Part shown: piece by piece, positions 34,586-56,668 of the stretch
How the letters are laid out: every line of letters begins with the position of its first letter
How positions within the stretch are numbered: the first letter of the stretch is position 1
NCBI RefSeq assembly: GCF_000519265.1
Contig: NZ_KI912608.1
Location: 2,761,313 to 2,825,312, forward strand
Source: Desulfonatronum lacustre DSM 10312
Lineage (GTDB): Bacteria; Desulfobacterota; Desulfovibrionia; Desulfovibrionales; Desulfonatronaceae
DNA: 64,000 nucleotides
Direction: 5' to 3'
Position numbers and translations under genes: made by a program
The notes under the pieces: model-generated
Seen by the model: only the letters and a program-made list of their open reading frames with translations
Databases searched by the model: none
Told to the model about the DNA's origin: nothing

Positions 34586-34740
34586 AGCGCCCGTCTGAAG
34601 GACAACCGCCCGCGTCAGCCCAGGCGCAATAGGAGGTTTCCGGCCACCTGGCGGCGGTAGTCGGCCGTGGCGCGGATGTCGTCGATGGGGCTGACCGCTT
34701 CGCGGATCAGGCGGGCGGCCTGGGTGAGGGCGCTTGGGCT
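34586..34740. repeat. parent copy of the 155-bp direct repeat (3' end of the FAD-subunit gene)
   Basis: Covers the last about 124 coding bases of the FAD subunit and 29 bases beyond its stop. The same unit stands at 33595-33749. The pair brackets 836 bp holding the RHH/PIN toxin-antitoxin genes. Confidence 0.9.
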
Positions 34741-35445
34741 GAGCTTGCGACCGACCAGGGCCTTTTCCGCCTCGATTGGACGAACCACCGTGGGGCCGAC
34801 GCTGCCCAGGGCCAGCCGCGCTTCTTGGACGATTCCCCGCGGCCCGGTGCGGACCAGCGCGGCCAGGCTGACCACGGCAATGGCCAGGGCGTTGCGCCGG
34901 CCGACTTTCTCGAAGTGCTGGACCTGAAAACCCTCAGCCAAGGGGATTCGGACCTCGGCCAGAATTTCGCCGGGCCGCAGCGCTATCCGCCCTGGGCCGA
35001 GGATGAATTCAGCCAGGGACAGCCGACGTTCAGCGTCTTTGGAGTGCAGCGTGATCTCGGCTTCCAGGGCGTACAATGGGGGCAGGCCGTCCCCGGCCGG
35101 CGAGGCGGTGCAGATGTTGCCGCCAAGGGTGGCCATGTTCCGGATCTGCGGCCCGCCCAGATGGGCCAGGGCCCGGACCAGGATCGGCGCGTGTTCGCGG
35201 ACCAGGGGCGAGTCCAGGCAGGCCCGGTGCGTGACGCAGGCCCCGATGCACAGCATGCCGCGCTCCACGCGGATGGTTTGCAGTTCGGGCAAGCGCTCCA
35301 GACAGATCGCGGTGTCGAATCGCTCCAGGCCCTTCCTGAGGCGGACCAGCAGATCGGTCCCCCCGGCCATCAGCGCCGCGCCGGGATTGTCCGCCAGCAT
35401 GGCCCACAACTCGTTCATTTCGCGGGGCAACAGAACAGCTTTCAT
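34615..35445 (-). CDS. molybdenum hydroxylase FAD-binding (medium) subunit
   Basis: 276 residues of the CoxM/XdhB family that pass electrons from the Fe-S subunit to an acceptor. FAD motifs GGTDLLVRLRKG (about 28-39) and NMATLGGNICTASPAGDGLPPLYAL (about 107-131) are intact. The C-terminal CO dehydrogenase flavoprotein domain ends RRQVAGNLLLRLG. Its start overlaps the Fe-S subunit stop by 4 bases. The 3' end has been duplicated 0.99 kb downstream. Confidence 0.88.
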   Translation of the reverse strand: MKAVLLPREMNELWAMLADNPGAALMAGGTDLLVRLRKGLERFDTAICLERLPELQTIRVERGMLCIGACVTHRACLDSPLVREHAPILVRALAHLGGPQIRNMATLGGNICTASPAGDGLPPLYALEAEITLHSKDAERRLSLAEFILGPGRIALRPGEILAEVRIPLAEGFQVQHFEKVGRRNALAIAVVSLAALVRTGPRGIVQEARLALGSVGPTVVRPIEAEKALVGRKLSPSALTQAARLIREAVSPIDDIRATADYRRQVAGNLLLRLG

Positions 35446-35927
35446 GCCTTTTCCTCCGGTTCGACCCGGTCTTGGTCACGGGCCACGGACTCCACCGCGT
35501 CCACGATTTTTTGGTACCCGGTGCAGCGGCAGAGGTTGCCGGAAAGGGCTTCGCGAATGGCCTGGCGGTCCGGACAGGGCTTTCGGGCCAGCAGATCCGC
35601 GGCCGTTACGACCATCCCGGGCGTGCAGTAACCGCATTGCACGGCCCCGTGTTCGGCAAAGGCACGCTGGACCGGATGTGGGTCCGTGCCCGACCCCAGC
35701 CCCTCCACTGTGACGATGGATCGTCCCTCCAACTGGACCGCGAACATCAGACAGGACAGCTTGGGCACGCCGTCAACCAGCATTGTACACGTCCCGCATT
35801 CCCCACTGCCGCAGCCTTCCTTGGTTCCCAACAGTCCGAGATCTTCGCGCAGCAGATCCACCACCCGCCGGTCGGGTTCGGTTTCCAGTTCCAATGGCCG
35901 ACCGTTAAGAATGCAGCGCACGATCAT
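35442..35927 (-). CDS. molybdenum hydroxylase [2Fe-2S] (small) subunit
   Basis: 161 residues. The plant-type ferredoxin cluster cysteines are in CGSGECGTCTMLVDGVPKLSC (first about residue 40) and the second all-helical cluster in QCGYCTPGM ... CRCTGYQKIVDAV. It matches CoxS/XdhC/NdhS-type subunits. Overlaps both neighbours by 4 bases, so the three subunits are made in stoichiometric coupling. Confidence 0.92.
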   Translation of the reverse strand: MIVRCILNGRPLELETEPDRRVVDLLREDLGLLGTKEGCGSGECGTCTMLVDGVPKLSCLMFAVQLEGRSIVTVEGLGSGTDPHPVQRAFAEHGAVQCGYCTPGMVVTAADLLARKPCPDRQAIREALSGNLCRCTGYQKIVDAVESVARDQDRVEPEEKA

Positions 35928-38236
35928 TTCTTCCTCCGTTTCATGGCCTTCAGCACGCGTTCCGGGGTCAGCGGGGCCTGGCGCACGTCAGCACCGCACG
36001 CCGCGTGCACGGCATTGGCCACCGCGGGCAGGGGGCCGCTCATCCCCACTTCGCCCACGCCCTTCATCCCAAAGGGGCCGCTGGGTTCTTCCACGTCGCA
36101 GGCCGGCGAAACCATGTCCGGCACGTCCAGGGCAGTGGGAATAATGTATGTCGTCAGGGTGTCCGCCCGCACCCGGCCTTCCTGGATATGCATGTCCTCG
36201 CTCAGAGCGTAGCCCAGCCCTTGGGCCACGGCCCCGTGGACCTGCTGCTCAAAGGCCTGGGGATTGAGTACCCGCCCGGCCTCGGTCACGGCCAGATACC
36301 GGCAGACCTCCACCGCGCCGGTCAGCTCGTCCACTTCCACGAACGCCGCGTGAGCCGCATGAGCGAACAGCAGGTGCGGGAAACCGATCCGGAATTCCCG
36401 TCCGCCGCTGACGGCATCCGGGGCCACGGGCATGAACGCCTCGGCCACGGCCTGGCGGTCGGCCTGGGAAAAGAAGGCCCCCAGCCTGGTCAGGGGCAGG
36501 TCCCGGCCCGTGGGCAGATGGCGGATCAGCCCGGGCAGCAGGGCCAGGTCCCTGGGTTCCTCCAGAAAAAAGAACATCGCGGCCCGGGCCAGGAGCTTGG
36601 CCTTCAGGTCCTCACAGGCCGGAATCAGAGCCTTGCCAAAGGTGTATGTGGTCCGTCCGGCGGAAGAGGATCCCGACGGGTGGCAACGGCTGGTATCGGG
36701 TTGCACCATCTCCAACCGGGAAGCGTCCTGGCCGAGGATTTGTCCGGCGATCTGGGCATAGGCCGTGGCATTGCCCTGGCCCATGTCCGCTACCCCGCTG
36801 AAGATGCGGAACATGCCCTCCGGCGTCAGCTCGACCTTGGCTATGGCCGAGTCCGGCAGACCCCGGCCGTAGCCCATGGCATTGTGCACCGCGGCCAGGC
36901 CCACGCCCCGGCGCTTGAAACGCGGGGCCTGGGCCACCCAGGTTTCACGTTCGCGCCACAGGGAATGCTCGGCAACCTTGTCCAGGCAGTCCCTGATGCC
37001 GGTCGACCCGGTCACGGTCACGCCGCAGGCGTTGCGATCCCCCCGGTTCAGGGCGTTTTTGCGCCGCAAATCCAGGGGATCCATACCCAGTCGGTTCGCC
37101 AGGCGATCCATGATCCGTTCCATGCCGAAGCTGACCTGGGCCACGCCAAAACCGCGCATGGCTCCGGCCACCGGATTATTCGTGTATGCAGCCCGACCTT
37201 CGATCTGGACGTTGGGCACGCGGTACGGCCCGGCGGCATGTTCCAAACCCAGGGCCAGCACCTCCCCGCCCAGATGGGCGTAGGCCCCGGTATCCAGCAG
37301 CAGGCGGCAGTGCAGGGCCAGCAGGGTTCCGTCCTTGTCCGCACCCAGTTCATAGTTCATCCGGGCCGCATGGCGGGTGTATCCGGCCAGAAAGCTTTCC
37401 TCCCGGTCCCAGCACATCTTCACGGGGCGACCTTTGGCGTGCATTGCGGCCAGGACCAGCAGACACTGCACCGTGGCCCCGTCCTTGCCGCCGAAACCAC
37501 CGCCGAGATAGGGCGCGACGACCCGGATCCGGGTGGGATCCAGGCCCAGGGCGTGGCCGATCTCGAAGCGATCCCGAAACGGGGCCTGGGTGGAGACGAC
37601 CAGGTGCAATATGCCTTCCTCGTCCTGCCAGGCCACTCCGTTTTCCGGTTCCAGATAGGCGTGGCGCTGGGCCGGAACCGCATACCCGCCGCGCACCCGT
37701 ACCGGACAGTCGGCCAGGGCCGCCTTGCCCCGGCCCGTGATGATGGACGAGCCGACCAGCAGATTGCCCTCGTCCCGCCCGTCATGCACCAATGGCGCGC
37801 CTTTTCGCAGGGCCGATTCCGGGTCGAACACCGCGGGCAAGGGCTCCAGGTCGACGCGGATCGCAGCCAGGGCCTCGGCCAGCGCGCTCTTGGTCTCCGC
37901 CAGGACCAGGGCCACGGGATCCCCGCAATGGCGGACCTTGGTTCCGGCCAGCACGGGCTGGTCCTTGTGCAGGATGCCCTGGCGGTTGGTTCCGGGCACG
38001 TCTTGGCGGGTCAGGATACGGATGATTCCGGGCAAGGACTCGGCCCGGGAGATGTCAACGCTTCGTATCCGGGCATGGGGAACCCCGGCGCGGCGAGCCC
38101 CTGCCCAGAGCAGGTTCGGCGGATACTCATCCACGGCGTAGCGTTCCGTCCCGCAAGCCTTGGCCAGGCCGTCGATGCGCGGCACGGAACGTCCGATTTC
38201 CAGCTGGGGAGCGGGCGCAAGGTGATTGAAGCTCAT
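35924..38236 (-). CDS. molybdenum hydroxylase molybdopterin-binding (large) subunit, xanthine/aldehyde dehydrogenase family
   Basis: 770 residues. N-terminal a/b hammerhead (GRSVPRIDGLAKACGTERYAVD), then Mo-cofactor motifs GGGFGGKDGATVQC (about 245-258), AGAMRGFGVAQ (about 355) and the catalytic Glu in GMKGVGEVGMSG near the C terminus. ATG at 38236 is preferred over an upstream in-frame reading because AGGA precedes it and SFNHLAPAP leads straight into the conserved domain. Purines, aldehydes, nicotinate or other N-heterocycles are possible substrates; the pocket residues alone do not settle it. First gene of a three-gene operon. Confidence 0.88.
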   Translation of the reverse strand: MSFNHLAPAPQLEIGRSVPRIDGLAKACGTERYAVDEYPPNLLWAGARRAGVPHARIRSVDISRAESLPGIIRILTRQDVPGTNRQGILHKDQPVLAGTKVRHCGDPVALVLAETKSALAEALAAIRVDLEPLPAVFDPESALRKGAPLVHDGRDEGNLLVGSSIITGRGKAALADCPVRVRGGYAVPAQRHAYLEPENGVAWQDEEGILHLVVSTQAPFRDRFEIGHALGLDPTRIRVVAPYLGGGFGGKDGATVQCLLVLAAMHAKGRPVKMCWDREESFLAGYTRHAARMNYELGADKDGTLLALHCRLLLDTGAYAHLGGEVLALGLEHAAGPYRVPNVQIEGRAAYTNNPVAGAMRGFGVAQVSFGMERIMDRLANRLGMDPLDLRRKNALNRGDRNACGVTVTGSTGIRDCLDKVAEHSLWRERETWVAQAPRFKRRGVGLAAVHNAMGYGRGLPDSAIAKVELTPEGMFRIFSGVADMGQGNATAYAQIAGQILGQDASRLEMVQPDTSRCHPSGSSSAGRTTYTFGKALIPACEDLKAKLLARAAMFFFLEEPRDLALLPGLIRHLPTGRDLPLTRLGAFFSQADRQAVAEAFMPVAPDAVSGGREFRIGFPHLLFAHAAHAAFVEVDELTGAVEVCRYLAVTEAGRVLNPQAFEQQVHGAVAQGLGYALSEDMHIQEGRVRADTLTTYIIPTALDVPDMVSPACDVEEPSGPFGMKGVGEVGMSGPLPAVANAVHAACGADVRQAPLTPERVLKAMKRRKK

Positions 38237-38407
38237 GAATGGGATTCCTGGTTGACGTTCAAACAGGCAAGGCATACCAAACGCAAACACGTCGTTGTCC
38301 ATGATGCCTGCATGCAGCTTTGGCTACTGATTCCGTGATCTGTCAAGTGCCGGACCGGGAAGAATTTTCGGGATGATGCCCATGCATCCATTCGCGACGT
38401 GGGTTAA

Positions 38408-38622: not shown

Positions 38623-39846
38623 ATGTCCATGAACACCGCCGCCGAATCGCCGGATTCCCTGTTCAGCTTTGAATTCGTCGCCTTGAGCGCCATAAGCTTT
38701 CTGGCGTTCTGCAATCTGTCCCTGTTCTACGGCTTCAACGCCTACCTGGAGGGGCTTGGGGTGGCGGCGGCGTGGCGCGGCGTCCTGATCGGCCTGGAAC
38801 CAGCCACGGCCTTTGTCCTGCGACCGATCATCAGCCCATGGCTCACGCCCCGCAACAGCGTCCAGATCATCGGCGTGGGCCTGGTCCTGATCATGCTTGC
38901 TCTGCTCGGGTACTCCCAGGCTGAAAATCTGTGGACCCTGGGCCTGATCCGGATGCTGCACGGCGCCGGCTTCGTGGTGATGATTTCGGCCTGTGTGAGC
39001 GTGCTCGTTCTTTTCATTCCTGAAGGTCGCAGCGGACAAGGGTTCGGGGTGTTCTCCATCACCACCCTCCTGCCGTACGCGGTGCTGCCGCCCCTTGTGG
39101 AGCCGCTGCTGGTCGCGTTCGGCGACGCCTCACGGGTTTACTCCCTGTTTTCGCCCTTGTTCGTGCCGGCACTGTTTCTGCTGCCGGCCGTAGGTCGCGG
39201 GGTCCGCCGCCGCGTGGCCGACCTGCCGGACAAGGCCATGCAACGTCCACGGCTCAAGGACCTTGTCGAGGATCTCCGCACGCCAGGTATTGCCAGGCTG
39301 CTGACGGCCAACCTGCTGTTGTTCATCGCCACCACCACGGTCTTCTTCTACATGAAGGATCATCTGTCGGCCCTGGGTGGCGGCAACCCAGGTTTTTTCT
39401 TCAGCATCTCCACCGGTGCGACCATTCTGGTGCGCATCGCCTGCGGCAAGCTTCTGGACAGGGTCAACCGGGCGGCCATGCTCGGGCTGTTTCTGCTGGC
39501 GCTGGCCGTGTGTTTTCTTCTCTTCAGCCTGGCTGAAACCCCGGACAATATCCTGATCCTGGCCGGACTGTACGGCGTTTGTCTGGGGTTTGTCATGCCC
39601 CAGCTCAACGCCGCCATGTTCGTCATCTCGCCGCGACATCTGCGCGGGTTGAACACGAACATGATGCTTTTCACCATGGACGCCGGCTTCTGGATGGGGC
39701 CGATGCTGGCGGGAACGCTGCTGGCCATGGGTGTGGCCTATGCGGAATTATTCCTGGCTTTCGCGGTTCTGCCCCTGGCTGGATCCGTGATCGCCTGGAG
39801 CATGGTCGGACTGCTGCGGGTCACGCAACACAACGCGGAAAAATGA
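38623..39846 (+). CDS. major facilitator superfamily transporter
   Basis: 407 residues with about 12 hydrophobic segments and a long central cytoplasmic loop (RRRVADLPDKAMQRPRLKDLV, about 188-208). It carries only a loose MFS loop motif. Substrate unknown. It stands alone, divergent from the molybdenum hydroxylase operon and convergent with the ammonia-lyase operon. It could export or import the product or substrate of either, but nothing in the sequence proves this. Confidence 0.8.
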   Translation: MSMNTAAESPDSLFSFEFVALSAISFLAFCNLSLFYGFNAYLEGLGVAAAWRGVLIGLEPATAFVLRPIISPWLTPRNSVQIIGVGLVLIMLALLGYSQAENLWTLGLIRMLHGAGFVVMISACVSVLVLFIPEGRSGQGFGVFSITTLLPYAVLPPLVEPLLVAFGDASRVYSLFSPLFVPALFLLPAVGRGVRRRVADLPDKAMQRPRLKDLVEDLRTPGIARLLTANLLLFIATTTVFFYMKDHLSALGGGNPGFFFSISTGATILVRIACGKLLDRVNRAAMLGLFLLALAVCFLLFSLAETPDNILILAGLYGVCLGFVMPQLNAAMFVISPRHLRGLNTNMMLFTMDAGFWMGPMLAGTLLAMGVAYAELFLAFAVLPLAGSVIAWSMVGLLRVTQHNAEK

Positions 39847-39902: not shown

Positions 39903-40152
39903 CAGGGCAATTTTGTTCTCACCAAATTTTTCCTGCAAAGACGGCTGGTTTGCCCTGTTTGGAACGGCTCGAAACTCCATCATCGGCCTCGTACCATCAA
40001 GCCGTTGCGCTTTAATAACAAGATGTTGTGCTCGCTGCGATGGGCAACGGCTTGATGAACGATTCCTGGTTCAGTCAGACAGTCGATCCGTCCCAAACAG
40101 GGCAAACCAGCCTCATAACTTCAGGTAGTTACGTGAGAACAAATTTGCCCTG
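39903..40152. mobile_element. 250-bp MITE with 20-bp terminal inverted repeats and 10-bp target duplication
   Basis: Ends are CAGGGCAATTTTGTTCTCAC and its complement with one mismatch (40133-40152). Inside are further nested inverted repeats (GGCTGGTTTGCCCTGTTTGG / CCAAACAGGGCAAACCAGCC; CATCAAGCCGTTGC / GCAACGGCTTGATG). GAGAGGGGCT occurs directly on both sides (39893-39902 and 40153-40162), a perfect 10-bp target-site duplication as made by IS4/IS1634-type transposases. No transposase inside, so it is non-autonomous. The right end supplies the last codons of the adjacent gene. Confidence 0.9.
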
Positions 40153-41202
40153 GAGAGGGGCTGTTTTTTCCTGCTCCGCCCTGATCCGCTCCAGCAGGGC
40201 CCGGGCCTTGTCATTATGCAGCCTGATGGCGGCATAGTCCGGCCGCTCCAGGATCTTCTGCATCAGCAGACCGTCGCTGTCGAACCAGCGCGGCAGGTAG
40301 CCGCCCAGGAACCATCCCCCGGCGCACAGCCGTTCGACGGCCCCGCCCACCTCCGCCTGCCCCAGGTTCAGGAACGCCTGGAGCGTCACGCACCCTTCCC
40401 GCAGGGCCTCGCTTTCCAGCCCTTCCAGAACACGGGGAAAATCCGCGCCCAGTGAGGGGAACTGGAACCGGGCCGTGCCCGTGCCGGGAAAGGCCTGCAC
40501 TTGGTGAACGGTCTGGCCGCCGGCCGGCAGGGTATTGGACGCCTCGGCAAACGTGCGCTGGAAATCCCGGTCCGCCAGGATGAAATCCAGAATATCCCGG
40601 TGCCTCTCAGGCAGGTGGACCCTGTGCGGTCGATCTCGGACGGTCTTGAACTGCAGGATGCAGGACATCCGGCCCGAGGCCCCGTCCCAGCCCTGGCTCG
40701 GGGGCAGCAGGCCCAGCTCCAGGGCGTAGTCGGCCATCTTCGCCTGGACGCCGAAGAGCTGGGTCACGATGTGATTGGTCACGGCCTCGGCGTAAATCCC
40801 TTCCACGGGCAGGCTTTCCGCCAAGGGTCCGTGGACGTACGTGTTGATCATATCGGCGATGTTTCGCCTCCGGTGGCTTTTCAGCACCAGATACTGCCCC
40901 ACTTCCAGCAGCCCGGCAAAGGGCGGCGAGCTGCGGTAGAGCGCTCCGTGGGCGACAATCACCCCGTCCGCGGTCTTGCAGACCACGGAGCTGAGCTGTT
41001 GCTCCTGGTTCAATTCCAGAATCCGCCGCGGAATATAGTAGTCCTCCACGGGATAGGCGTCGCCGTACACCGCGTGGTAGAGCCGGGCCACGCCGGTTTC
41101 GTCCCCCGGGGCGAACAGGCTGAGCGCAACCTCCTGCTCCACGTCCGCCGTCAGCGGGTCGGCCGCGAAGCGTTCGACGAAATACTGCTTGTCTTCGGGC
41201 AT
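40129..41202 (-). CDS. GNAT-like protein paralogous to the middle of the adjacent fusion enzyme (third gene of operon)
   Basis: 357 residues. N-terminal GNAT-like half (GVARLYHAVYGDAYPVEDYYIPRRIL, then LEVGQYLVLKSHRRRNIADM as the acetyl-CoA region) and a C-terminal half ending in the hallmark GWFLGGYLPRWFDSDGLL. The same order occurs in the 45316-46359 protein and in residues about 415-785 of the fusion protein. Separated from the fusion gene by 17 bases with AAGGAGA before the ATG. Its last residues (QGKFVLT) are encoded by an inserted MITE; without the insertion the frame would end PLPQG. Substrate unknown. Confidence 0.75.
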   Translation of the reverse strand: MPEDKQYFVERFAADPLTADVEQEVALSLFAPGDETGVARLYHAVYGDAYPVEDYYIPRRILELNQEQQLSSVVCKTADGVIVAHGALYRSSPPFAGLLEVGQYLVLKSHRRRNIADMINTYVHGPLAESLPVEGIYAEAVTNHIVTQLFGVQAKMADYALELGLLPPSQGWDGASGRMSCILQFKTVRDRPHRVHLPERHRDILDFILADRDFQRTFAEASNTLPAGGQTVHQVQAFPGTGTARFQFPSLGADFPRVLEGLESEALREGCVTLQAFLNLGQAEVGGAVERLCAGGWFLGGYLPRWFDSDGLLMQKILERPDYAAIRLHNDKARALLERIRAEQEKTAPLQGKFVLT

Positions 41203-41219
41203 GATCCATCTCCTTCCGG

Positions 41220-44200
41220 TCAGTGCAGGGCCGCGACAACGCCGCCCACCGCCTGCACGGTCCGGCCTTCAGCGGCAATGTCCCGGGTCAGTTTTTCCAC
41301 CAGAACTTCCAGGGACTGCTCGTCGTCGTTCCAGATCAGGGGGCGGGAATCCTGCTGGGTATGGCCCAGGACATCCAGCACCGCCTGGTACAGGCCCGCG
41401 CCGGCGGGTGAGAGCAGGGGGCGCGGGTCGTGGCTGCCGGACATCCGGGCCGCGCGCAGGGACACGGCCTGGACCCCGAAGATCAGGGCCATGGCGGTGT
41501 AGGATTGCAGGGAGCGGATGGATGTGCGGGCCAGGACCGCGGAGTTGAAGCCCTGGCTGTTGATGTTCTGGTTGAACTGCTCGGCGTGGGTCGGGAAGCG
41601 GTCGGCAATGGGCGCGCCGTGGTAGGACAACAGGGGCATGATGGAGTTGGCCGCGATCTGCAGGCCCTTGAGCCCCATGTTCACCTTGCGCTCCGGGTTG
41701 CCCACCAGGGAGGCAGGCAGGCCGGCGTTGAATTCCGGAGCCGCGAGCAGGGCGATCTGGGTGTCCATGTGCTTGGCCGCCAGACCCAGGTAGTAGCGCA
41801 GATGGTCCATCCACACGGCCACGTACTGGCCGAGGAAGTTCCCGCTGTGCAGGCTCAGGCAGTTGTCGCCGTCAATGAGCGGGTTGTCGTTGGCCGAATT
41901 CATCTCGGTTTCCACGGCCGCGGCGGCCAGGCGCAGCCCGTCCAGCACCGGGCCCACGAACTGGGGCAGGCAGCGCAGGGAATAGCGGTCCTGGGCCGGC
42001 TGCCCGTCCAGCACCTCGTGGTGGCCGTCCAACTCGTTGCGGCACATGGCTGACCCGTCCAGGAGCCGGAGCATCAGCTCCGCGGCCAGGACCTGGCCGG
42101 GATGCGGCTTGAGCTTCTGGATGAAGGGATGAAAGGACTGGTTGGTGCCGCGCAGGGCCTGGATGACCAGGGCGTGAAAGCTCAGGCACAGGGCCGTCAG
42201 GCGGCGGGCGTCGTAAAGGCAGTTGGCCGCGATCCCGGTCATCACCGAGGTGCCGTTGACCATGCCCAGGCCCTCCTTGGGCCCCAGGGTGAAGGGCTTC
42301 AGGCCAAGGCGCTCCAGGGCCGTCAGACAGCTCACGGTTTCACCGCGCATGTCCACCTGGAAGCAGGGATCAGCCCCGACCAGGGCCCCGGCGATGGTGG
42401 CCAGGGGCGCCAGATCCCCGCTGGCCCCGATGGAGCCCATGTCCCGGACCAGGGGCGTCACGCCGTTGTTCAGAAAGAGCACGGACCGGTCAATGAGTTC
42501 CCGGCGCACGCCCGAGGCCCCGCGCAAGTGGGAATTGACCCGCAGGAGCATGGCCGCGCGCACGTCCTCCAGGGGGAGATATTCTCCGGCGCAGACGTTC
42601 AAAAAGCGCAGCAGGTTGTTTTGCAGGGCGCAGAGGTCGCTTTCGGGGATGGTCACGTCGGCCATGCCGCCGAACCCGGTGTTCACCCCGTAGATGGGTT
42701 CGCCGGTGCGCACGGCCCATTCGATGAACGAGGCCGAGGCCTCGACCCGGTCCATCACGGACCGGTCCGTGGTCAGCCGGACCGGCCTGGCGTGCCGGGC
42801 CCCGGCCACCACTTCATCCACGGTCAGCCCTTCGCCGGACAGAACCACTTCCTCGATCCGGGCGGCCTGGAGCCATTCCCGGTCCAGGGCCGCGGCCTTG
42901 GCCTGGGCGGGCCGCTTCAGCGCGGAGACACAGGCCGGATTGGACTCGATGTCGCGCAGGATCAGATCCAGGATGCGGTGCGCCCGCTGGGAATAGAGCT
43001 TGATGGAATCAGGCCCGGGCATGTCCAGGACCTTTTGCATCAGCAGGCCGTCGGTCTCGAACCAGCCCGGCAGCAGCCCGCCCAGGAAATAGCCCTGCTC
43101 GCGCAGGGCGGTCACGGCCTGGCCGCACCAGGACTCGCCGAGATTGACGAACACCTGGAGCACCCGGGCCCCGGACTTGCCGGTTCCGGCTCGGGAATCC
43201 GCGGCCAGGGCCTGGGACTCGAAACCGGCCAGGCTGCGCTCGAAATCCGGTCCCAGGGTCAGGACATGCATCCGGGCCACCTGGGCAAAGGCGAAGTATT
43301 CCGTGGAAACCCGGGTGGCGATGCCCGCCGGGGACTCGTCGTCGCCCGGCAGCACGAGGCGGTCCAGCCGGGCGTCCTGCAGCAGATAATCAACAGCTTC
43401 CTGGTAAACGGCCGGGACATGCAGCCGACGCTGTTCATCACGGGTGCGGCCGAACAGCAGGAGCGTGGAAACGCGGTCGTCCGGATGCTCCGTGGTCCCA
43501 TAGGCGGCCGCGGGCATCAGCCCGATTTCCAGGGCCGTTTCCACCAGCCCGCACATGGCCGCGAACTTCTGGGTGACCACCTGATGGCAGGGGGCCTCGC
43601 TGAAAAAGACCTCCACGCCGTGCCGGGGAATGAGCGCGTCGCGGATGAACTCCTGCAGGGCCAGGGGAACCTGGGTGCCGCGGTAGGCCGGATGGATCAC
43701 GTGGGAGCCGATTTCATAGACGCCGTGATGGGGCGCGGAGCTGCGGAACAGACTGCCGTAGCCGACGATGTCGCCGCCAGGGGTGCGGGCCACGGCGCTG
43801 TGGACCAGGCCCAGCCGGTTCTCCTCCAGCAGCCGCTCCGGGATGTAATAGGTCTCAAAGGGAAAGGAGCCGCCGAACACTTCGTAAAAGAGCCCGGCCA
43901 CGCCCCAGGCGTCGTCCATGTCGTCGCCCATGTCGCCGTCCATGCCGCCGTCCATGCTTCCTTTTGAGCGCAGCCCGTCCACGGTGAATTTCTGGCCGGG
44001 TTCGATTGTCCGGGCTTCGGCTTGCAGCCTGGACAGGGCCTGGTCCAGGGTCATGGCCACCTGCCTGGTGTCAACGGTCCAGTCGGCCAGCTTGCCCATT
44101 TCGTTCTTGGGCAGTTCCGGGCCAAAGGTGACGGCGCCCGGCTGCTCGACCCGGTACAGCCGACCGGCCAGATGGACGCGCAACGCGTCGCGCATTGCCG

Positions 44201-45272
44201 GGCCCGGCGTGAACCCGTCCTTGAGCACCACGAAGGCCTTCAGCCGGTCGCCCTCCTCCCGGCGCATCAGCCGCACCGCGCAGTCGGCCACGGCCTCATG
44301 GGCCAGCAGCGCCTCCCGGACCCGGGCCGGATAGACGTTGATCCCGGCCACCTGGACCGCGCTGTCCAGGCGCTTCTTGACGAAAAACCGGGTCTCGTCC
44401 ACCCATTCCAGGGCGTCCTGGAAGGCAAAGGGCTCGGACTGGCCGCCGTCTTCCAGATCGCGCACGAACTGGTCCTCTCCGAAGCGCTTCCAGGTGGCCA
44501 TCAGGGTCAGCGGATCGTCGGGATTGGAGCGGTGGCCCATGGCCCCGCTTTCCGAGGATCCGTAGATCTCGAACATCACCTGCAGCCCTTGGCGCTTGAG
44601 GGTGCGGATGATTTCCGGCGGACACGGTCCGGTGGACGTGACCCCGATCACCCCGGCCGGAAAACGCTCCTTGGTTTCGGAACACAGCCTCCAGATGTGC
44701 GGGAACCCGATCAACGCATCGCCCGGGGCCAGATCCTTGATGATTCGCGCGGGCCGCTTGAAGCGCAGGTCGCGGAGTTGCGCCCCCAGAACCTTGGGAA
44801 TCAGAACCGTGTAGATGAAGCCGTAAATATGGTGCGGCGGGACGAGGCCCAGAATCCGTTTGGTCCCCTGGAGCATTTCGGCCAGATGCAGGGCGTCCTG
44901 CTCCAGGAAGTAATAGTCCCGTACAATGGGCTTGGGCTCGCCGGTACTGCCCGAGGTGTAAAAGGTGATCACCTGGGGCCTGGGCCCGACCTGTTCCAGC
45001 AGATGCCCGGCCCACTGGCCCAGGGTGGCCAGCCCGCCCAGCCCGGCGTCAACCTCCCCGGTCAGTCCAAAAAATCCGCCCACCCGGGAAGCGATCAAAG
45101 CCAGCTGGTCCGGCGATGTGGCCAAAGGGTCCTGGGCCAGGGCGCTGTCCGGAGTGAGCAGCAACTCATCCCCGAACACGTCGGACGTTTTGCGCAGCTT
45201 CTTCAGTTCGGCATAGACAACGGCCCGCGTGAGATGAAAATAGTCGTCCAGGTCAAGAGATATCTGCCCCAT
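41220..45272 (-). CDS. trifunctional fusion: adenylate-forming ligase, GNAT-like region, aromatic amino acid ammonia-lyase
   Basis: 1350 residues in three blocks. (1) About 1-400: adenylate-forming ligase related to coumarate/acyl-CoA ligases, with TSGSTGEPKP at 106-115, YGSSESGAMGH at 237-247 and the catalytic-Lys motif LPKNEMGK at 387-394; the N-terminal part is short. (2) About 415-785: GNAT-like region with HPAYRG at 527-532 and GYFLGGLLPGWFETDGLL at 727-743, joined by an Asp/Met/Gly-rich linker (439-454) encoded by a short tandem repeat. (3) About 806-1350: full-length MIO ammonia-lyase with YGVNTGFGG at 861, the MIO tripeptide in GASGDLAPLA (950-952) and NSANDNPL-type NSANDNPLI. The selectivity pair is Phe-Leu (890-891), as in plant phenylalanine ammonia-lyase, rather than Ser-His of histidine lyase. 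A plausible route is Phe to cinnamate, then activation by the ligase. GGAGGA precedes the ATG. Confidence 0.85.
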   Translation of the reverse strand: MGQISLDLDDYFHLTRAVVYAELKKLRKTSDVFGDELLLTPDSALAQDPLATSPDQLALIASRVGGFFGLTGEVDAGLGGLATLGQWAGHLLEQVGPRPQVITFYTSGSTGEPKPIVRDYYFLEQDALHLAEMLQGTKRILGLVPPHHIYGFIYTVLIPKVLGAQLRDLRFKRPARIIKDLAPGDALIGFPHIWRLCSETKERFPAGVIGVTSTGPCPPEIIRTLKRQGLQVMFEIYGSSESGAMGHRSNPDDPLTLMATWKRFGEDQFVRDLEDGGQSEPFAFQDALEWVDETRFFVKKRLDSAVQVAGINVYPARVREALLAHEAVADCAVRLMRREEGDRLKAFVVLKDGFTPGPAMRDALRVHLAGRLYRVEQPGAVTFGPELPKNEMGKLADWTVDTRQVAMTLDQALSRLQAEARTIEPGQKFTVDGLRSKGSMDGGMDGDMGDDMDDAWGVAGLFYEVFGGSFPFETYYIPERLLEENRLGLVHSAVARTPGGDIVGYGSLFRSSAPHHGVYEIGSHVIHPAYRGTQVPLALQEFIRDALIPRHGVEVFFSEAPCHQVVTQKFAAMCGLVETALEIGLMPAAAYGTTEHPDDRVSTLLLFGRTRDEQRRLHVPAVYQEAVDYLLQDARLDRLVLPGDDESPAGIATRVSTEYFAFAQVARMHVLTLGPDFERSLAGFESQALAADSRAGTGKSGARVLQVFVNLGESWCGQAVTALREQGYFLGGLLPGWFETDGLLMQKVLDMPGPDSIKLYSQRAHRILDLILRDIESNPACVSALKRPAQAKAAALDREWLQAARIEEVVLSGEGLTVDEVVAGARHARPVRLTTDRSVMDRVEASASFIEWAVRTGEPIYGVNTGFGGMADVTIPESDLCALQNNLLRFLNVCAGEYLPLEDVRAAMLLRVNSHLRGASGVRRELIDRSVLFLNNGVTPLVRDMGSIGASGDLAPLATIAGALVGADPCFQVDMRGETVSCLTALERLGLKPFTLGPKEGLGMVNGTSVMTGIAANCLYDARRLTALCLSFHALVIQALRGTNQSFHPFIQKLKPHPGQVLAAELMLRLLDGSAMCRNELDGHHEVLDGQPAQDRYSLRCLPQFVGPVLDGLRLAAAAVETEMNSANDNPLIDGDNCLSLHSGNFLGQYVAVWMDHLRYYLGLAAKHMDTQIALLAAPEFNAGLPASLVGNPERKVNMGLKGLQIAANSIMPLLSYHGAPIADRFPTHAEQFNQNINSQGFNSAVLARTSIRSLQSYTAMALIFGVQAVSLRAARMSGSHDPRPLLSPAGAGLYQAVLDVLGHTQQDSRPLIWNDDEQSLEVLVEKLTRDIAAEGRTVQAVGGVVAALH

Positions 45273-45315
45273 GGCGAGGGTCCTCCGAGGTGAGTGGATG
45301 TGAGGGTGAACGGGG

Positions 45316-46359
45316 TTACTGGTTTTTTGCCGGACGGTCGCGGTCCGTGCGGATCAGCTCCAGAAGCATCCGCGCCTCTTCAGGGTAGAGTTTGATTCTG
45401 GAAAAGTCCGGTTCTCCGGCGACTTTTTGCAGCAGCAACCCATCCTGATCATACCAGAGCGGCAACAATCCGCCCAGGAAATACCCCTTGGTCCGGGCCG
45501 CGTCCACTGCCCCGGTGCAGCCCGGTCGCTCCAGGGGCAGCACGATCTGATAGACGTGACGCTCCGGGAAGTCCTGTTCCATCCGGGCCAGGACGGCGCC
45601 GAAGTCAGGCCCGATCCGGTCCACGGTCATTTTGACCAGATCAGCCTTGTCCATGGGCTGGATCGCGGCCTCGGTGGAACCGGTCGGGCCGGGATCGTCC
45701 CGGAATTCGCGATCCAGGTTACGGCTGGCGTAGAGGGCGCGCAAGACGTCGGCGTAGAGACGGGGAAGATGCACGGCGTGGGGCCGGTCCCGCAGGATGA
45801 TGAACCCGTCCAGCAGGCTGATCCGGCCTGAGCCCGGTCCGGCGTGTTCTTCGGGCCTGGGCGGCATGGCCTCGATTTCCAGGGCGCCGTAGAAGCTGTT
45901 GTATTTGATGCCCATTTTCTGGGTGGTGACATGGTCGCAGACGGTCTGCCCGTAAATGACGTCCACTCCCAGGCGCTCGGGCGGGGCGGTATTAATCCTG
46001 GCGGCCAGACGCATGGCCAGGGAAGAGGTGCGGTAGGCCGGATGCACGATCCAGGATCCGGCCTCCATGATCCTGTGTCCCGGAGGGTTGCGGAACAGGG
46101 CGTACAGGCCGACGATATCGCCCTTGTCCGTGCGCCCGAGCACCTGGTACAGATCCGGCCCGGCATTCAGCCGGACCAGCTCCTCCGGATCATAGACATA
46201 ATCCACCGGAAACATCTCGCCGTACACGGCGTGGAACAGCCGGGCCACGCCAAGTCCGTCTTCGGGCCGGAACTCGTCCACCACGAACTTTTGGCCGGGT
46301 TCGATGACATGGGGCGCGGCGCGCATGGCCGCGAGGCATTCTTCCCTGGATTTGGGCAT
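45316..46359 (-). CDS. GNAT-like protein, first gene of the ligase/ammonia-lyase operon
   Basis: 347 residues, paralogous to the 40129 protein and to the centre of the fusion enzyme: EPGQKFVVDEF (about 22-32), GVARLFHAVYG, WIVHPAYRTSSLAMRLAARI (acetyl-CoA region, about 115-134) and GYFLGGLLPLWYDQDGLL (about 298-315). ATG at 46359 is chosen for AAGGAAG upstream; the upstream in-frame extension reads into a palindromic repeat. 43 bases separate it from the fusion gene. Acyl donor and acceptor are unknown. Confidence 0.78.
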   Translation of the reverse strand: MPKSREECLAAMRAAPHVIEPGQKFVVDEFRPEDGLGVARLFHAVYGEMFPVDYVYDPEELVRLNAGPDLYQVLGRTDKGDIVGLYALFRNPPGHRIMEAGSWIVHPAYRTSSLAMRLAARINTAPPERLGVDVIYGQTVCDHVTTQKMGIKYNSFYGALEIEAMPPRPEEHAGPGSGRISLLDGFIILRDRPHAVHLPRLYADVLRALYASRNLDREFRDDPGPTGSTEAAIQPMDKADLVKMTVDRIGPDFGAVLARMEQDFPERHVYQIVLPLERPGCTGAVDAARTKGYFLGGLLPLWYDQDGLLLQKVAGEPDFSRIKLYPEEARMLLELIRTDRDRPAKNQ

Positions 46360-47084
46360 GGGGTTCTTCCTTTTCAGTGCGATGGGCGATTGGCTGCGAG
46401 GCGAAAGCTTTTGGTAATTGCTCAAAAGGGCCGGGCAAACCCCCAAATTGCCTCTGCCCCTGGATTCCCGCCTGCGCGGGAATGACTGAAATGGCACGTT
46501 CTCTCAAGCTCGTCATGCCCGCGCAGGCGGGAATCCAGGTCATTTTGAGAAGTTACAGCTTTCGCCATGAACATGCCGGTTTCCGGAGGGGAAGCGGGAG
46601 TTCAATGTAATCATGCATCATCAGAAGCCGCAAGCCCCGCGACAAGTTCATACGGACTTTTGATTCCGATGCAACGGTTCTTGACTGATGGCGAAACGAT
46701 CAGGAGCCAGATACGATTGCTTCCACCCCAAATGTCGTTTAAAGGCTTCAACATTTGGTACGTTATCGGTTTCCTGAAGCCAGTACCGGATTTGACGATG
46801 CGTGATAACGTTCCGGTGGGACACTGGCCTTCAAGACCTTCGCCCATTCGGCAAAAGTGATCACGGTGTATCCATCATTTCCTCCGAGGTTGGCTTTATG
46901 CCCCGCTCTTGTGGTGAGTATTTGGCTGCCGCATAAAGCTGACTTCAGCACGAAGCATGAAGCTGACCTCGGAGTCAAGATGGATTTGGCAGACACAACT
47001 CAAGGCGCTGAAATAACGTGGAAAATTCGGACTATTCTTTCAAAAAATACTTGCCGAATCAGCAGGTGTTAAGGCCGGGAATTT
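46360..47084. other. intergenic region with a pair of palindromic repeats; no gene supported
   Basis: Contains inverted copies of a widespread 27-bp palindromic unit at 46460-46486 and 46512-46538 (CTGGATTCCCGC ... / GTCATGCCCGC ...), which together can form a large stem upstream of the ammonia-lyase operon. From about 46560 the G+C drops. Short frames on both strands (46567-46860 +, 46611-46847 -, 46763-46996 -) show no recognisable family. Confidence 0.6.
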
Positions 47085-47127
47085 GGAGGGGCGGATTTTT
47101 GCGAGTTCCGTATAATAACACTGTTAG
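47085..47127 (+). other. attI-like or shared insertion-site sequence before the second cassette array
   Basis: Matches 26714-26756 (TTTTTGCGA, TATAAT-like, ACTGTTAG) and ends in the core GTTAGAC (47123-47129) that starts the next cassette. No integrase gene is nearby. Confidence 0.55.
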
Positions 47128-47145
47128 ACAGGGGAGAAACAAGAA

Positions 47146-48195
47146 ATGCCGAATGTTCCGACGTTCATCAAGCCGTCTCGGACTGTGGACGAGGTTCAAC
47201 CGCTGTCACAGGCCGTCACAATCTTGAACAGCTTGCGTGGCGTCGAAACATCGGTGGTTCTTGACCTGAATATCCTAAACATGATGCGCAGTGTGATGTC
47301 GGGGGACAGCACACTGGACGAAGAGAATCTCTCTGGCCTTGTCGATTTCTTCAACAGCAATCCCGTTAGCATCACGCCGGGCTTCGCGTTCGGAGAAACT
47401 GACAAGGAGTATGTCACGGGACTCCGTGCTGACTACGAGAAGTTTATGTCGCGGTATTGTCCCGGATACATCGACACTCCTAACTGCACGCACGATTTCG
47501 GGAAACGAGCCAGGAGCAGAGAGTTCAAGAGGCTTGGCCGAGGCGACCGATACACTCTCGTAATAATGTACACGGCCATGTTGGCGATCCAAGTGATCAG
47601 CAAGGAGTCCCAGGGGGCGTCGCCGGAGCAAAAGTTCTCGGCATACTTGGATTTCATGAGAACCGACGCAGATATGGTTTCTGCCATTGAGGCTGAGGTG
47701 GCCAAGTACTGGTTCTTCGACAGAACCCGCGTCAGAGACGAGTCCTTCAGGTCTCGATGCAAAATAATACGCGACAACTTCAATAAAGGCGGAAAAGGGC
47801 GTGGGCGGCTGCAGTACACGTTGAACTACGCGAGAGATTTGGCCTATTACCGCTTCACGGCGCTTCAGGATGGCAAGCCGTTAGATGGCGTCGTTCAGGA
47901 CTGCTGGCTCGTGACCGCTGATCAAGCTCTCATAGAAGTCGCGAAGTCGATTTACTTCTATCCTTGCGAGGGTGAGGCCGCGAAGTTTGTTGCGCTAGCG
48001 CGTAACGAGGAGCAAGAGCACAGTGATTACTGGATATACTGTGACGAACTTTTTCAAAGCGCTGTGGTAAGGCGGCAGAGGTCGGGGAAAGCTCTCGCCC
48101 CGATGACGAAGAAGTCTTGGGAAAAGTTGTTTTCATCCCAGCGGCGCCTCGAAAATAAGGTCCTCGAATATTGGCCTGAAGAAGAAAATGTCTAA
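47146..48195 (+). CDS. integron-cassette protein, unknown; weak PIN-like features
   Basis: 349 residues, no family recognised with confidence. Features seen: VVLDLNILNMM near residue 38 and CWLVTADQALIEVA near residue 255, spacing and style reminiscent of PIN-like nucleases, plus many basic residues in the middle (KRARSREFKRLGRGDRY). No signal peptide or membrane segment. The ATG is 17 bases after the cassette core and the stop lies inside the GTCTAAC of its attC, leaving almost no free DNA, which is typical of cassettes. Confidence 0.6.
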   Translation: MPNVPTFIKPSRTVDEVQPLSQAVTILNSLRGVETSVVLDLNILNMMRSVMSGDSTLDEENLSGLVDFFNSNPVSITPGFAFGETDKEYVTGLRADYEKFMSRYCPGYIDTPNCTHDFGKRARSREFKRLGRGDRYTLVIMYTAMLAIQVISKESQGASPEQKFSAYLDFMRTDADMVSAIEAEVAKYWFFDRTRVRDESFRSRCKIIRDNFNKGGKGRGRLQYTLNYARDLAYYRFTALQDGKPLDGVVQDCWLVTADQALIEVAKSIYFYPCEGEAAKFVALARNEEQEHSDYWIYCDELFQSAVVRRQRSGKALAPMTKKSWEKLFSSQRRLENKVLEYWPEEENV

Positions 48196-48252
48196 CAAAG
48201 CCATGGAGCGCGACGGCTGCTTCGCAGCCGCGGCTCATGGCTGGCGTTGTGC
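48190..48252 (+). other. attC site of the first cassette in the 47-kb array
   Basis: GTCTAAC (48190-48196) is the exact complement of the cassette's opening GTTAGAC (47123). Inner arms AGCCATGGAGC / GCTCATGGCT and CGGCTGC-TTC-GCAGCCG form a long imperfect stem with unpaired bases, then the right core GTTGTGC (48246-48252), which opens the next cassette. Confidence 0.85.
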
Positions 48253-48302
48253 TTAAAACAAAAGTTTGACAATAATCTTAAATTTAAGGAACATCACAAA
48301 AT

Positions 48303-49847
48303 ATGTTGAAGCTAAAAGATATTTATGTCGGTGACGTTGATGCTAAGAATGAGTTAATTGAAGCATCAGATAGTGAAGCACTAAGATTTATCAAATCATT
48401 TACTGTCAATGATGGCATAGATATAGATGACTACTTCAGCGGAAAAATGTTTTTTATTACAGGATTAAAAGGGACAGGAAAAACAGCATTCCTGAGGTAT
48501 CTTTCGCTATTGGCAAAAAGAAAACATATGAACTCCTTGTTTGTACTATTTAAAAGTAACATTAAGGAAACAGACAGAGCCAAGTTAAGTAAAAATTCTG
48601 ATACAATTGTTATAGAGGAAAAGGGAAGCATAAAATATATTCAAGATTATGAAAAAATTTGGATGCTTTTTTTACACAAAACAATACTTAATCTTTTAGA
48701 AAAAACAGATCAACCTGTATTTATACATGATGATAATTGGAAGAAATATAAATATGCTGTTTTAGGGGCTGATTATGGAAACAAGGCATTAGGTGTACTT
48801 CGCTATTTCCCAACAATATCAAAGGGAATGATCAATTTTTTTATTCCAGAAGAATACAAAGATTACTTTCAAATTGATTTAGGGGAAAATAATGCAGGTC
48901 AGGTAAATTTTTCATTACTCGTTAATACAATAAATGAATTTTTCTCAAATCTTACACCATCCGAAGGAAAAGTTTTTCTTTTTGTGGATGAATTAGAATT
49001 GAATTTAGGAAGCCAAGAGCAATACAAAAGAGATATACTCTTAATTCGGGATCTAATTATCGCGGTTGAACATTTAAATAGAGAGATGGCTATTAAAAAT
49101 TTCCCTGTCAAAATTTTTTGTGCTGCAAGAAGGGAGGTCATTACAGCTGTAGATGGTATCGGAAAAGAAATTGCTAAACCAACCGAAGACTTTGGTGTTG
49201 AGTTGATTTGGAATTCAAGAATTGGTAGCGAGAACGAATCATTTGATCACCCATTAATCCAGTTAATCGCAAAAAAAATAAATGTTTCTGAAGAAATTAA
49301 AGGAATTCAATCTGATTTTGAATGTGAAGAATTAATATATAAATATTTCCCCCAATCTATCAATGGTATTCACATTACCAAATACTTGTTAGATCGATCA
49401 TGGTTCCGTCCAAGAGATTTTTCGAGAATGTTAAGACAGATTACGAAACAATATGGAAAAATGGATAAGGGGTTTACACAAGCCTGTTTCGAAGGAACGC
49501 AAAAAGCCTATGCTACAAGTAGTTGGACAGAAATCGCTGAAGAATTAGCGGCTAAATATAAAAAGGGAACGATTCGATCTGTAGAAAAACTATTCAGTGG
49601 TGTACCAAAACAATTTTCGTTTGAGGATATTCAAAAAATTGCTAAAACCAAATCAAAACACAGTAGGGATTTAGATGAATTTATCGATTCAAGAAACCTT
49701 TCCGAGCTTTTAGCAGATTTGTTTCAAATCGGATTTATTGGCAATTCAAACCCTTTCCGATTTCATTTTAGGGGGGATGCAAATCTTAATCTTGAAGCCG
49801 ATATGGTAGTGCATCGAGCTCTTTGGCCCTATTTTTCGATTATTTAA
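48303..49847 (+). CDS. A+T-rich P-loop ATPase in an integron cassette (Sll1717-family-like)
   Basis: 514 residues. Walker A GLKGTGKTAFL near residues 57-67, Walker B VFLFVDELELN near 223-233 and a C-terminal helical region (RPRDFSRMLRQITKQYGK, about 377). The arrangement resembles the Sll1717-type P-loop ATPases often found in defence or mobile islands; this family call is tentative. The gene is strikingly A+T-rich compared with everything to its left (about one-third G+C by eye), showing foreign origin. It has AAGGAA before the ATG and its own cassette ends. Confidence 0.65.
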   Translation: MLKLKDIYVGDVDAKNELIEASDSEALRFIKSFTVNDGIDIDDYFSGKMFFITGLKGTGKTAFLRYLSLLAKRKHMNSLFVLFKSNIKETDRAKLSKNSDTIVIEEKGSIKYIQDYEKIWMLFLHKTILNLLEKTDQPVFIHDDNWKKYKYAVLGADYGNKALGVLRYFPTISKGMINFFIPEEYKDYFQIDLGENNAGQVNFSLLVNTINEFFSNLTPSEGKVFLFVDELELNLGSQEQYKRDILLIRDLIIAVEHLNREMAIKNFPVKIFCAARREVITAVDGIGKEIAKPTEDFGVELIWNSRIGSENESFDHPLIQLIAKKINVSEEIKGIQSDFECEELIYKYFPQSINGIHITKYLLDRSWFRPRDFSRMLRQITKQYGKMDKGFTQACFEGTQKAYATSSWTEIAEELAAKYKKGTIRSVEKLFSGVPKQFSFEDIQKIAKTKSKHSRDLDEFIDSRNLSELLADLFQIGFIGNSNPFRFHFRGDANLNLEADMVVHRALWPYFSII

Positions 49848-49942
49848 TTGAAAATTATCCTTGTCCAAAGTTTTGTAGCCAATTGAGTACATGTGTTATC
49901 TATCCGCAGAGTTAGAAAATTAATATACTATCGGACAAAATT

Positions 49943-50002
49943 GTACAACAAACGGGTCAACGCGGACTCGCTTAAGCTCGCCGGTTACCCTACACGTTAG
50001 CG
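49943..50002 (+). other. attC site of the ATPase cassette
   Basis: GTACAAC (49943-49949) matches the complement of the cassette's leading GTTGTGC at 6 of 7 positions. Arms GGGTCAACGCGG / CCGGTTACCC pair with two bulged bases around a GCTTAAGC tip. The right core GTTAGCG (49996-50002) opens the following unit. Confidence 0.8.
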
Positions 50003-50024
50003 CTCAACATACAGGGAGTCTTGG

Positions 50025-51212: not shown

Positions 51213-51373
51213 TGGCAAGTGCCATTCGCATAGGCAAAAAGGGCAAAAAGGGACATCCATGATAAGCAAGTCAAAAGGGGAAAAAAGGGACAGGCTAAAT
51301 ATGCTTGACAGGCGCGGATATTCACGTTTACTTTCACTTTCACCTGCCAACTCAAGACCTCCCGGAGGAGAGC

Positions 51374-56654: not shown

Positions 56655-56668
56655 ATAATTATAATCAG

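What the first reader, a model, noticed from the sequence alone, without database searches (positions are those of the whole stretch)
40129..46359. Operon with a ligase-GNAT-ammonia-lyase fusion enzyme flanked by two stand-alone GNAT paralogues
Seen: three tightly spaced minus-strand genes (gaps of 43 and 17 bases). The central 1350-residue protein joins an adenylate-forming ligase (TSGSTGEPKP, LPKNEMGK), a GNAT-like region and a complete MIO ammonia-lyase (GASGDLAPLA). The outer two proteins are paralogues of the fused middle region, sharing EPGQKF.VD, HPAYR and GYFLGGLLPxWxxxDGLL. Known: ammonia-lyase plus coumarate-type ligase makes cinnamoyl/coumaroyl thioesters, as in photoactive-yellow-protein chromophore or aryl-polyene pathways, where these are normally separate proteins. 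Inference: a single polypeptide may convert Phe to an activated cinnamoyl unit and hand it to an acyltransferase, with two extra acyltransferases tailoring the acceptor. I know of no described system with this layout.
Basis: partly seen in the sequence, partly recalled or inferred. Interest (0 to 1): 0.88.

Follow-up and report, generated by a model that had tools for sequence, protein, structure and literature searches.

The report
Ligase-acyltransferase-lyase fusion in sulfate-reducer relatives
One large bacterial protein joins three enzymes that together look able to turn the amino acid phenylalanine into an activated cinnamic-acid unit and attach it to another molecule, and it belongs to a family of gene clusters, spread through sulfate-reducing bacteria, for which I found no description.

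Summary
A 1350-residue protein joins a short coumarate-CoA-ligase-type adenylating domain, a GNAT acyltransferase-type region and a complete phenylalanine-type MIO ammonia-lyase. It lies in an operon between two GNAT paralogues. The fusion is not an assembly error: it is intact in five genomes of the window's order and one Desulfobulbaceae MAG (68-97% identity), always just behind the same stand-alone GNAT, with dN/dS about 0.13-0.22 in all three domains against the closest copy. The lyase aligns end to end with Anabaena PAL and keeps the Phe-selective residues.

New here: the GNAT family (below Pfam cut-offs) is widespread in Desulfobacterota, in a recurring neighbourhood: benzoate-CoA-ligase-type ligase, acyl carrier protein, GNAT, three-subunit molybdenum hydroxylase, MFS transporter, HisC-like aminotransferase, ATPase-GNAT protein. 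The carrier is sometimes fused to the GNAT. The fused GNAT falls in the ligase/carrier-adjacent branch. So the fusion is probably a carrier-less, self-feeding variant: Phe to cinnamate to activated cinnamoyl to GNAT acyl transfer. Acceptor, product and role are unknown. PYP, aryl-polyene and catabolic readings are disfavoured. I found no description of this layout, but my literature access was limited. New variant of a known kind.

The parts
45316..46359 (-). GNAT A (347 aa), stand-alone tandem-GNAT protein directly upstream of the fusion
   Evidence: Directly upstream of the fusion in all six genomes; own branch of the GNAT tree
41220..45272 (-). Tri-domain fusion ligase-GNAT-ammonia-lyase (1350 aa)
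   Evidence: Single frame in six genomes
44073..45272 (-). Adenylate-forming ligase domain, residues 1-400
   Evidence: TIGR02372 264 bits (cut-off 334.7), motifs A3, A5, A8, A10 kept in all six with minor substitutions
43908..44072 (-). Linker, residues 401-455, variable, no carrier domain seen
   Evidence: 53-54% identity between window and distant orthologues, dN/dS 0.40 against the closest copy
42918..43907 (-). Tandem GNAT-like region, residues 456-785
   Evidence: Structure model, N half GNAT Z 12.8; Glu520 invariant in 49/49, Arg531 in 48/49, loop Gly lost
41223..42851 (-). Phenylalanine ammonia-lyase domain, residues 808-1350
   Evidence: 680 bits to Anabaena variabilis PAL 2nyn over 542 residues; F890-L891 selectivity pair
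42417..42425 (-). MIO-forming Ala-Ser-Gly triad, residues 950-952
   Evidence: GASGDL conserved in all six fusions
40129..41202 (-). GNAT B (357 aa), stand-alone tandem-GNAT protein downstream of the fusion
   Evidence: Present also in G004 (adjacent) and G021 (displaced about 8 kb); 37% to the fused GNAT
38623..39846 (+). MFS transporter of the recurring neighbourhood
   Evidence: PF07690; MFS beside GNAT/molybdenum-hydroxylase genes in many genomes
35924..38302 (-). Xanthine-dehydrogenase-family molybdenum subunit
   Evidence: PF02738 and PF20256; below every NCBIfam equivalog cut-off; neighbour of the GNAT family across the phylum
35442..35927 (-). 2Fe-2S subunit of the molybdenum hydroxylase
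   Evidence: NCBIfam matches below cut-off
34615..35445 (-). FAD subunit of the molybdenum hydroxylase
   Evidence: NCBIfam matches below cut-off

Best explanation
The fusion is a self-feeding cinnamoyl-transfer enzyme in a specialised-metabolite-type gene neighbourhood. Step 1 (strong sequence support): the C-terminal lyase deaminates L-Phe to trans-cinnamate. Step 2 (good support): the N-terminal ligase adenylates the cinnamate and makes an activated cinnamoyl thioester, probably cinnamoyl-CoA. Step 3 (inferred from fusion, gene order and fold): the central GNAT-type region transfers the cinnamoyl group to an amine or hydroxyl of an unidentified acceptor. It is a variant of a ligase + acyl carrier protein + GNAT set found in relatives; the lyase was added, the ligase is of another family, and the carrier protein is gone. 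Step 4 (weak, from gene neighbourhood only): GNAT A, the molybdenum hydroxylase, the HisC-like aminotransferase and the MFS transporter make, modify or export the acceptor or product.
For: Lyase: end-to-end match to Anabaena PAL (680 bits), with the MIO triad, catalytic Tyr861, the F890-L891 pair, Gln1094, Arg1100 and Glu1231 conserved in six orthologues. PMC5651878 names FL as the PAL and YH as the TAL signature and counts the residues at AvPAL 78, 311, 317 and 359 among active-site positions. It is the only lyase of this family in the genome. Ligase: best specific NCBIfam match is 4-coumarate-CoA ligase, with complete A3/A5/A8/A10 motifs. GNAT: fold model, invariant Glu on the strand before the CoA loop. 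Hand-over: benzoate-CoA-ligase-type ligase, carrier protein and GNAT are adjacent in L036, L174, L182, L201, L205, L206, L207, L209, L234, L241, and the carrier (VDSLDY motif) is fused to the GNAT in L197-L199. Fused GNATs are one clade (100/100) nearest those of L206/L209 (84/82). Purifying selection on all three domains.
Against: No activity has been measured. The GNAT region's CoA pyrophosphate loop lacks the usual glycine (RGTQVP), and the window copy lacks the final Gly/Ala too. The C-terminal half of the GNAT region has only weak, partial GNAT-like matches (Z under 8). No carrier protein gene was seen beside the fusion. Ligase and lyase miss the curated equivalog cut-offs. The grouping of the fused GNATs with L206/L209 has only moderate support. 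Acceptor and product are unknown.
Confidence: 0.55

Rival explanations
1. The fusion supplies cinnamoyl or coumaroyl starter units to the aryl-polyene-like type II polyketide cluster elsewhere in the same genome.
For: That cluster (L029) has a ligase 62-65% identical to the fused ligase domain and no ammonia-lyase of its own; the two ligases are close relatives.
Against: The cluster lies 0.9 Mb away and has its own free ligase. G005 has the same cluster but no fusion. G004 and G021 have the fusion but no such free ligase. The fused GNAT has no obvious role in that pathway.
Confidence: 0.1
2. The fusion makes the chromophore for a photoactive yellow protein (PYP).
For: The ligase domain's best specific family is 4-coumarate-CoA ligase TIGR02372; PYP operons pair a lyase with a ligase (PMC12826048).
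Against: No PYP in the genome: best PAS-type match 31.6 bits against a cut-off of 143. Selectivity pair F-L points to Phe, not Tyr.
Confidence: 0.02
3. Anaerobic aromatic catabolism: Phe is turned to cinnamoyl-CoA for degradation, with the xanthine-dehydrogenase-family enzyme acting like 4-hydroxybenzoyl-CoA reductase.
For: Benzoate-CoA-ligase-type relatives in sister clusters; the hydroxylase's top solved match is 4-hydroxybenzoyl-CoA reductase.
Against: No dearomatisation hydrolase, and no match at all to this crotonase-superfamily model in the genome, while 11 of 14 control genomes ring. The hydroxylase scores 445 against the reductase cut-off of 994.6. Carrier-protein fusions and GNATs do not fit catabolism.
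Confidence: 0.08
4. The middle region has lost acyl transfer and acts only as scaffold or sensor; the protein just makes cinnamoyl-CoA or an acyl-adenylate.
For: Degenerate CoA loop; weakly matching second half.
Against: Glu520 and Arg531 are kept in nearly the whole family; dN/dS of the GNAT segment (0.22) is like that of the enzymatic domains. The loop glycine is missing in the ligase/carrier-adjacent relatives too, so its loss is a family trait rather than local decay.
Confidence: 0.15
5. The lyase domain is an aminomutase making beta-phenylalanine rather than cinnamate.
For: Lyases and mutases share the fold and MIO; both families match.
Against: The closest solved relatives are cyanobacterial PALs (680 bits) rather than enzymes named mutases (about 170-268 bits). 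Fusion to a coumarate-type ligase argues for an arylacrylic acid.
Confidence: 0.05

Closest known systems
Cyanobacterial phenylalanine ammonia-lyases (AvPAL, NpPAL)
   Same: Full-length match, MIO triad, F-L selectivity pair, active-site residues
   Different: Free-standing proteins; here fused to a ligase and a GNAT
PYP operon lyase + p-coumaroyl-CoA ligase (Halorhodospira type)
   Same: Lyase and coumarate-type ligase combined to make an activated arylacrylate
   Different: Separate genes, Tyr-derived, with a PYP; here one polypeptide, Phe-type, no PYP, added GNAT
Aryl-polyene-type cluster ligases in the same order
   Same: Closest relatives of the fused ligase domain (62-65% in the window's genus)
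   Different: Part of a polyketide cluster without lyase or GNAT fusion
PAL-ligase gene pairs (cyanobacteria, Herpetosiphon) and two-domain PAL(N)-ligase(C) fusions (Enhygromyxa, a Thiomargarita MAG), seen
   Same: PAL coupled to an acyl-CoA-ligase-family enzyme
   Different: Different ligase family, reversed domain order, no GNAT, often next to polyketide or peptide synthases
Ligase-ACP-GNAT-molybdenum-hydroxylase clusters of Desulfobacterota (found here)
   Same: Same GNAT branch, same MFS, hydroxylase and GNAT A neighbours
   Different: Ligase of the benzoate-CoA-ligase family, a carrier protein present, no lyase

Membership tests
Phenylalanine ammonia-lyase (bacterial, MIO) | MIO-forming Ala-Ser-Gly and catalytic Tyr | tested here: met
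   GASGDL at 949, Tyr861 in YGVNTGFGG, all six orthologues
Phenylalanine ammonia-lyase (bacterial, MIO) | F-L selectivity pair (YH in TAL) and carboxylate-binding residues | tested here: met
   F890-L891, Gln1094, Arg1100; aligned to AvPAL
Phenylalanine ammonia-lyase (bacterial, MIO) | NCBIfam PAL equivalog TIGR01226 cut-off (680-position model) | tested here: not met
   386 bits against 519; still the best of all NCBIfam lyase models for this domain
Phenylalanine ammonia-lyase (bacterial, MIO) | Release of trans-cinnamate from L-Phe | not testable with these tools
   Needs an assay
4-coumarate-CoA ligase (TIGR02372) | Curated equivalog cut-off | tested here: not met
   264 bits against 334.7: filed only as a relative
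Adenylate-forming (ANL) ligase | A3, A5, A8, A10 motifs with catalytic Lys | tested here: met
   TSGSTGEPKP, EIYGSSE, KKRLDSAVQVAGINVYP, LPKNEMGK
GNAT superfamily | GNAT fold | tested here: met
   N-terminal half: Z 12.8, 162 residues, 2.6 A to 2j8m
GNAT superfamily | Q/R-x-x-G-x-G/A CoA pyrophosphate loop | tested here: not met
   RGTQVP; glycine missing in 44 of 49 family members, Arg kept in 48
GNAT superfamily | Second (C-terminal) GNAT-like half | tested here: inconclusive
   Model pLDDT 89.5 but best Z 7.8 with 83 residues
PYP chromophore pathway | A PYP gene in the genome | tested here: not met
   31.6 bits against 143.05
Aryl-polyene pathway | Gene within or co-occurring with the polyketide cluster | tested here: not met
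   0.9 Mb apart; fusion without cluster ligase in G004 and G021, cluster without fusion in G005
Anaerobic benzoyl-CoA-type catabolism | Ring-opening hydrolase (TIGR03200) | tested here: not met
   No match
Ligase-ACP-GNAT-hydroxylase cluster (described here) | Ligase coupled to a GNAT of the same branch, with hydroxylase, MFS and GNAT A beside it | tested here: met
   but hydroxylase and MFS are absent next to the fusion in G075 and G078
Ligase-ACP-GNAT-hydroxylase cluster (described here) | Acyl carrier protein | tested here: not met
   None seen in the fusion or beside it

The most novel reading that the evidence does not exclude
The tandem-GNAT family is a class of carrier-protein- or adenylate-fed aroyltransferases at the heart of an undescribed, phylum-wide metabolite pathway of Desulfobacterota (ligase, carrier protein, GNAT, molybdenum hydroxylase, HisC-like aminotransferase, ATPase-GNAT, exporter). 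The fusion would then be a single-protein machine that makes its own cinnamoyl donor from Phe and passes it inside the protein to the acyltransferase without a carrier protein.
Probability: 0.3. Interest if true: 0.78.

Novelty: new variant of a known kind. Interest (0 to 1): 0.6.

Why it matters
Lyase, ligase and acyltransferase are normally separate proteins. One natural polypeptide joining them would be a ready-made biocatalyst for cinnamoyl amides or esters from Phe, and a Rosetta stone for an otherwise anonymous gene cluster in anaerobes little studied as makers of specialised metabolites. The conserved neighbourhood gives a concrete target for finding a new metabolite class, and the odd GNAT family raises the testable question of how a GNAT takes an acyl group without a normal CoA-binding loop.

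Tried and rejected
Assembly or frameshift artefact: rejected, six intact orthologues. PYP link: rejected. Aryl-polyene supply: disfavoured by presence and absence. Catabolism: disfavoured. Carrier domain hidden in the linker: none by Pfam and none seen by eye. Sequence search of solved structures with GNAT B found nothing convincing, so the fold was predicted. Whether the second half has a known or new fold: left open. Literature searches for such fusions or clusters gave no description; the library is open-access only and preprints are not held, so absence is weak evidence. Ligase tree: the free aryl-polyene ligases of the window's genus nest inside the fused ligases, but one fused clade is not rejected (p-AU 0.415), so the direction of the split is unknown. 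A search of plasmid records found only separate lyases and ligases, none covering 80% of the fusion.

Full report
WHAT IS THERE. The three genes are as described: GNAT A 46359-45316, fusion 45272-41220, GNAT B 41202-40129, all minus strand, gaps 43 and 17 bases, ribosome-binding-like sequences before the second and third starts. Pfam and NCBIfam give, in the fusion, an AMP-binding ligase (residues about 6-396; best specific family TIGR02372, 264 bits) and an aromatic ammonia-lyase (PF00221, 466 bits). The middle and the two flanking proteins fall below every Pfam cut-off.

IS THE FUSION REAL. Yes. In the window's genome (single contig, 3.76 Mb) the frame is open throughout. Full-length orthologues exist in four other genomes out of 348 searched in the order: G004 97%, G021 79%, G075 69%, G078 69%. 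A sixth is in a Desulfobulbaceae MAG (L060), 73% in its best segment. GNAT A directly precedes the fusion in all six. Between window and G004, dN/dS is about 0.13 (ligase), 0.22 (GNAT), 0.20 (lyase) and 0.40 (linker). L060 and G075 are MAGs, so their taxonomic assignment is less sure than the protein.

THE LYASE. It aligns end to end with Anabaena variabilis PAL (2nyn, 680 bits over 542 residues) and Nostoc PAL. MIO triad, catalytic Tyr861, F890-L891, Gln1094, Tyr1097, Arg1100, Glu1231 and Gln1235 are kept in all six fusions. According to PMC5651878, FL at the selectivity positions marks PAL and YH marks TAL. The curated equivalog cut-off is not reached. The nearest free PAL found is in a Deltaproteobacteria MAG (L139, 65%); the fused lyases are one clade. 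It is the only member of the family in the genome. Inference: Phe to trans-cinnamate.

THE LIGASE. All adenylation motifs are intact. Its nearest free relatives are ligases of aryl-polyene-like type II polyketide clusters in the same genus (62-65%). These nest inside the fused ligases, but a single fused clade is not rejected (p-AU 0.415).

THE GNAT REGION. An AlphaFold2 model on 49 family members is confident (pLDDT 87.7, pTM 0.87). The first half is a GNAT fold (Z 12.8, 162 residues, 2.6 A to 2j8m). The second half, folded alone (pLDDT 89.5), gives only partial GNAT-like matches with Z under 8, so its fold stays open. Glu520 is invariant in 49 of 49 family members and lies on the strand before the CoA loop, where several GNATs keep a catalytic acidic residue (the latter from my own knowledge). 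Arg531 is kept in 48 of 49, but the loop glycine is absent in 44 of 49, including the window (RGTQVP).

THE WIDER SYSTEM. GNAT A relatives occur in 70 of 345 genomes of the order, and relatives of the fused GNAT in 41 of 328 good genomes of the phylum sample. Their neighbourhoods repeat. Of 37 loci in the order, 15 hold a molybdenum hydroxylase like the window's, 21 a HisC-like aminotransferase, 21 an ATPase-GNAT protein (RsbW-like N-terminus, GNAT-like C-terminus), 18 an MFS transporter, 13 a benzoate-CoA-ligase-type ligase and 14 a carrier protein. In the 20 phylum loci the numbers are 9, 11, 10, 11, 3 and 3. None of these appear in seven control loci. At my rough estimate, chance would put a hydroxylase in about 1% of such loci. 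In the window genome the hydroxylase (34615-38302) and MFS (38623-39846) genes flank the operon. The HisC and ATPase-GNAT genes lie just beyond the window at 66547-68974, on the same strand, behind some 18 kb of mostly lower-GC DNA with transposase-like genes. In G021 the HisC gene directly precedes GNAT A.

LIGASE, CARRIER AND GNAT BELONG TOGETHER. In L036, L174, L182, L201, L205, L206, L207, L209, L234 and L241 a ligase, a small carrier protein and a GNAT are neighbours. In L197-L199 the carrier is fused to the N-terminus of the GNAT. In the tree of 65 GNATs the six fused domains form one clade (100/100), next to the ligase-carrier-adjacent GNATs of L206/L209 (84/82, moderate), while GNAT A lies in another branch. 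The fusion is thus best read as a ligase-GNAT pair of this system with another ligase, a lyase added and no carrier. The missing loop glycine in the carrier-adjacent relatives would fit acyl-carrier donors; for the fusion, cinnamoyl-CoA, cinnamoyl-AMP or a carrier acting in trans all remain possible.

RIVALS. No PYP. The aryl-polyene cluster and the fusion do not co-occur regularly. No dearomatisation hydrolase and no match to its crotonase-superfamily model in the genome, against catabolism. Two-domain PAL-ligase fusions of another ligase family and order exist in Enhygromyxa and a Thiomargarita MAG, and PAL-ligase gene pairs in cyanobacteria and Herpetosiphon: coupling of PAL and ligase has arisen more than once, which supports the coupling but lowers the novelty of that part.

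SHOWN AND INFERRED. Shown here: existence, conservation, domain make-up, active-site motifs, predicted GNAT fold of the first half, repeated gene neighbourhood. Inferred: all catalytic steps, the hand-over, the donor, the acceptor, the role. Novelty rests on a limited, open-access literature search.

Noticed in passing
L029 (own genome C1:3704001-3724000): Type II polyketide, aryl-polyene-like cluster with ketosynthases, carrier protein, MMPL-type exporter and a free coumarate-type ligase but no ammonia-lyase; several radical SAM genes alongside.
   Followed up: partly
window 46500-64000: GC falls from about 0.65 to 0.35-0.59, with transposase-like genes near 51.3, 54.4 and 57.2 kb: probably inserted DNA separating the operon from the HisC/ATPase-GNAT pair beyond the window.
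   Followed up: partly
L039:8093-9640 and L040:6575-8092: Two proteins of the own genome with an RsbW-like ATPase N-terminus and a tandem-GNAT C-terminus, distant kin of the operon's GNATs; function unknown.
   Followed up: partly
L230 (G434:C100, about 7.6-11.8 kb): Four tandem-GNAT genes of this family in a row in another Desulfobacterota genome.
   Followed up: no
L102:285-3479 and L121:8878-12189: Two-domain PAL-ligase fusions (lyase first, another ligase family) in a Thiomargarita MAG and Enhygromyxa salina.
   Followed up: no
L032:2459-2728: In G021 a remnant of the fusion's C-terminus lies joined to an unrelated small ORF directly upstream of the displaced GNAT B: trace of a recombination.
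   Followed up: no
window 9-956: GNAT protein resembling beta-lysine acetyltransferase AblB, beside a spermidine/putrescine-type ABC transporter operon.
   Followed up: no
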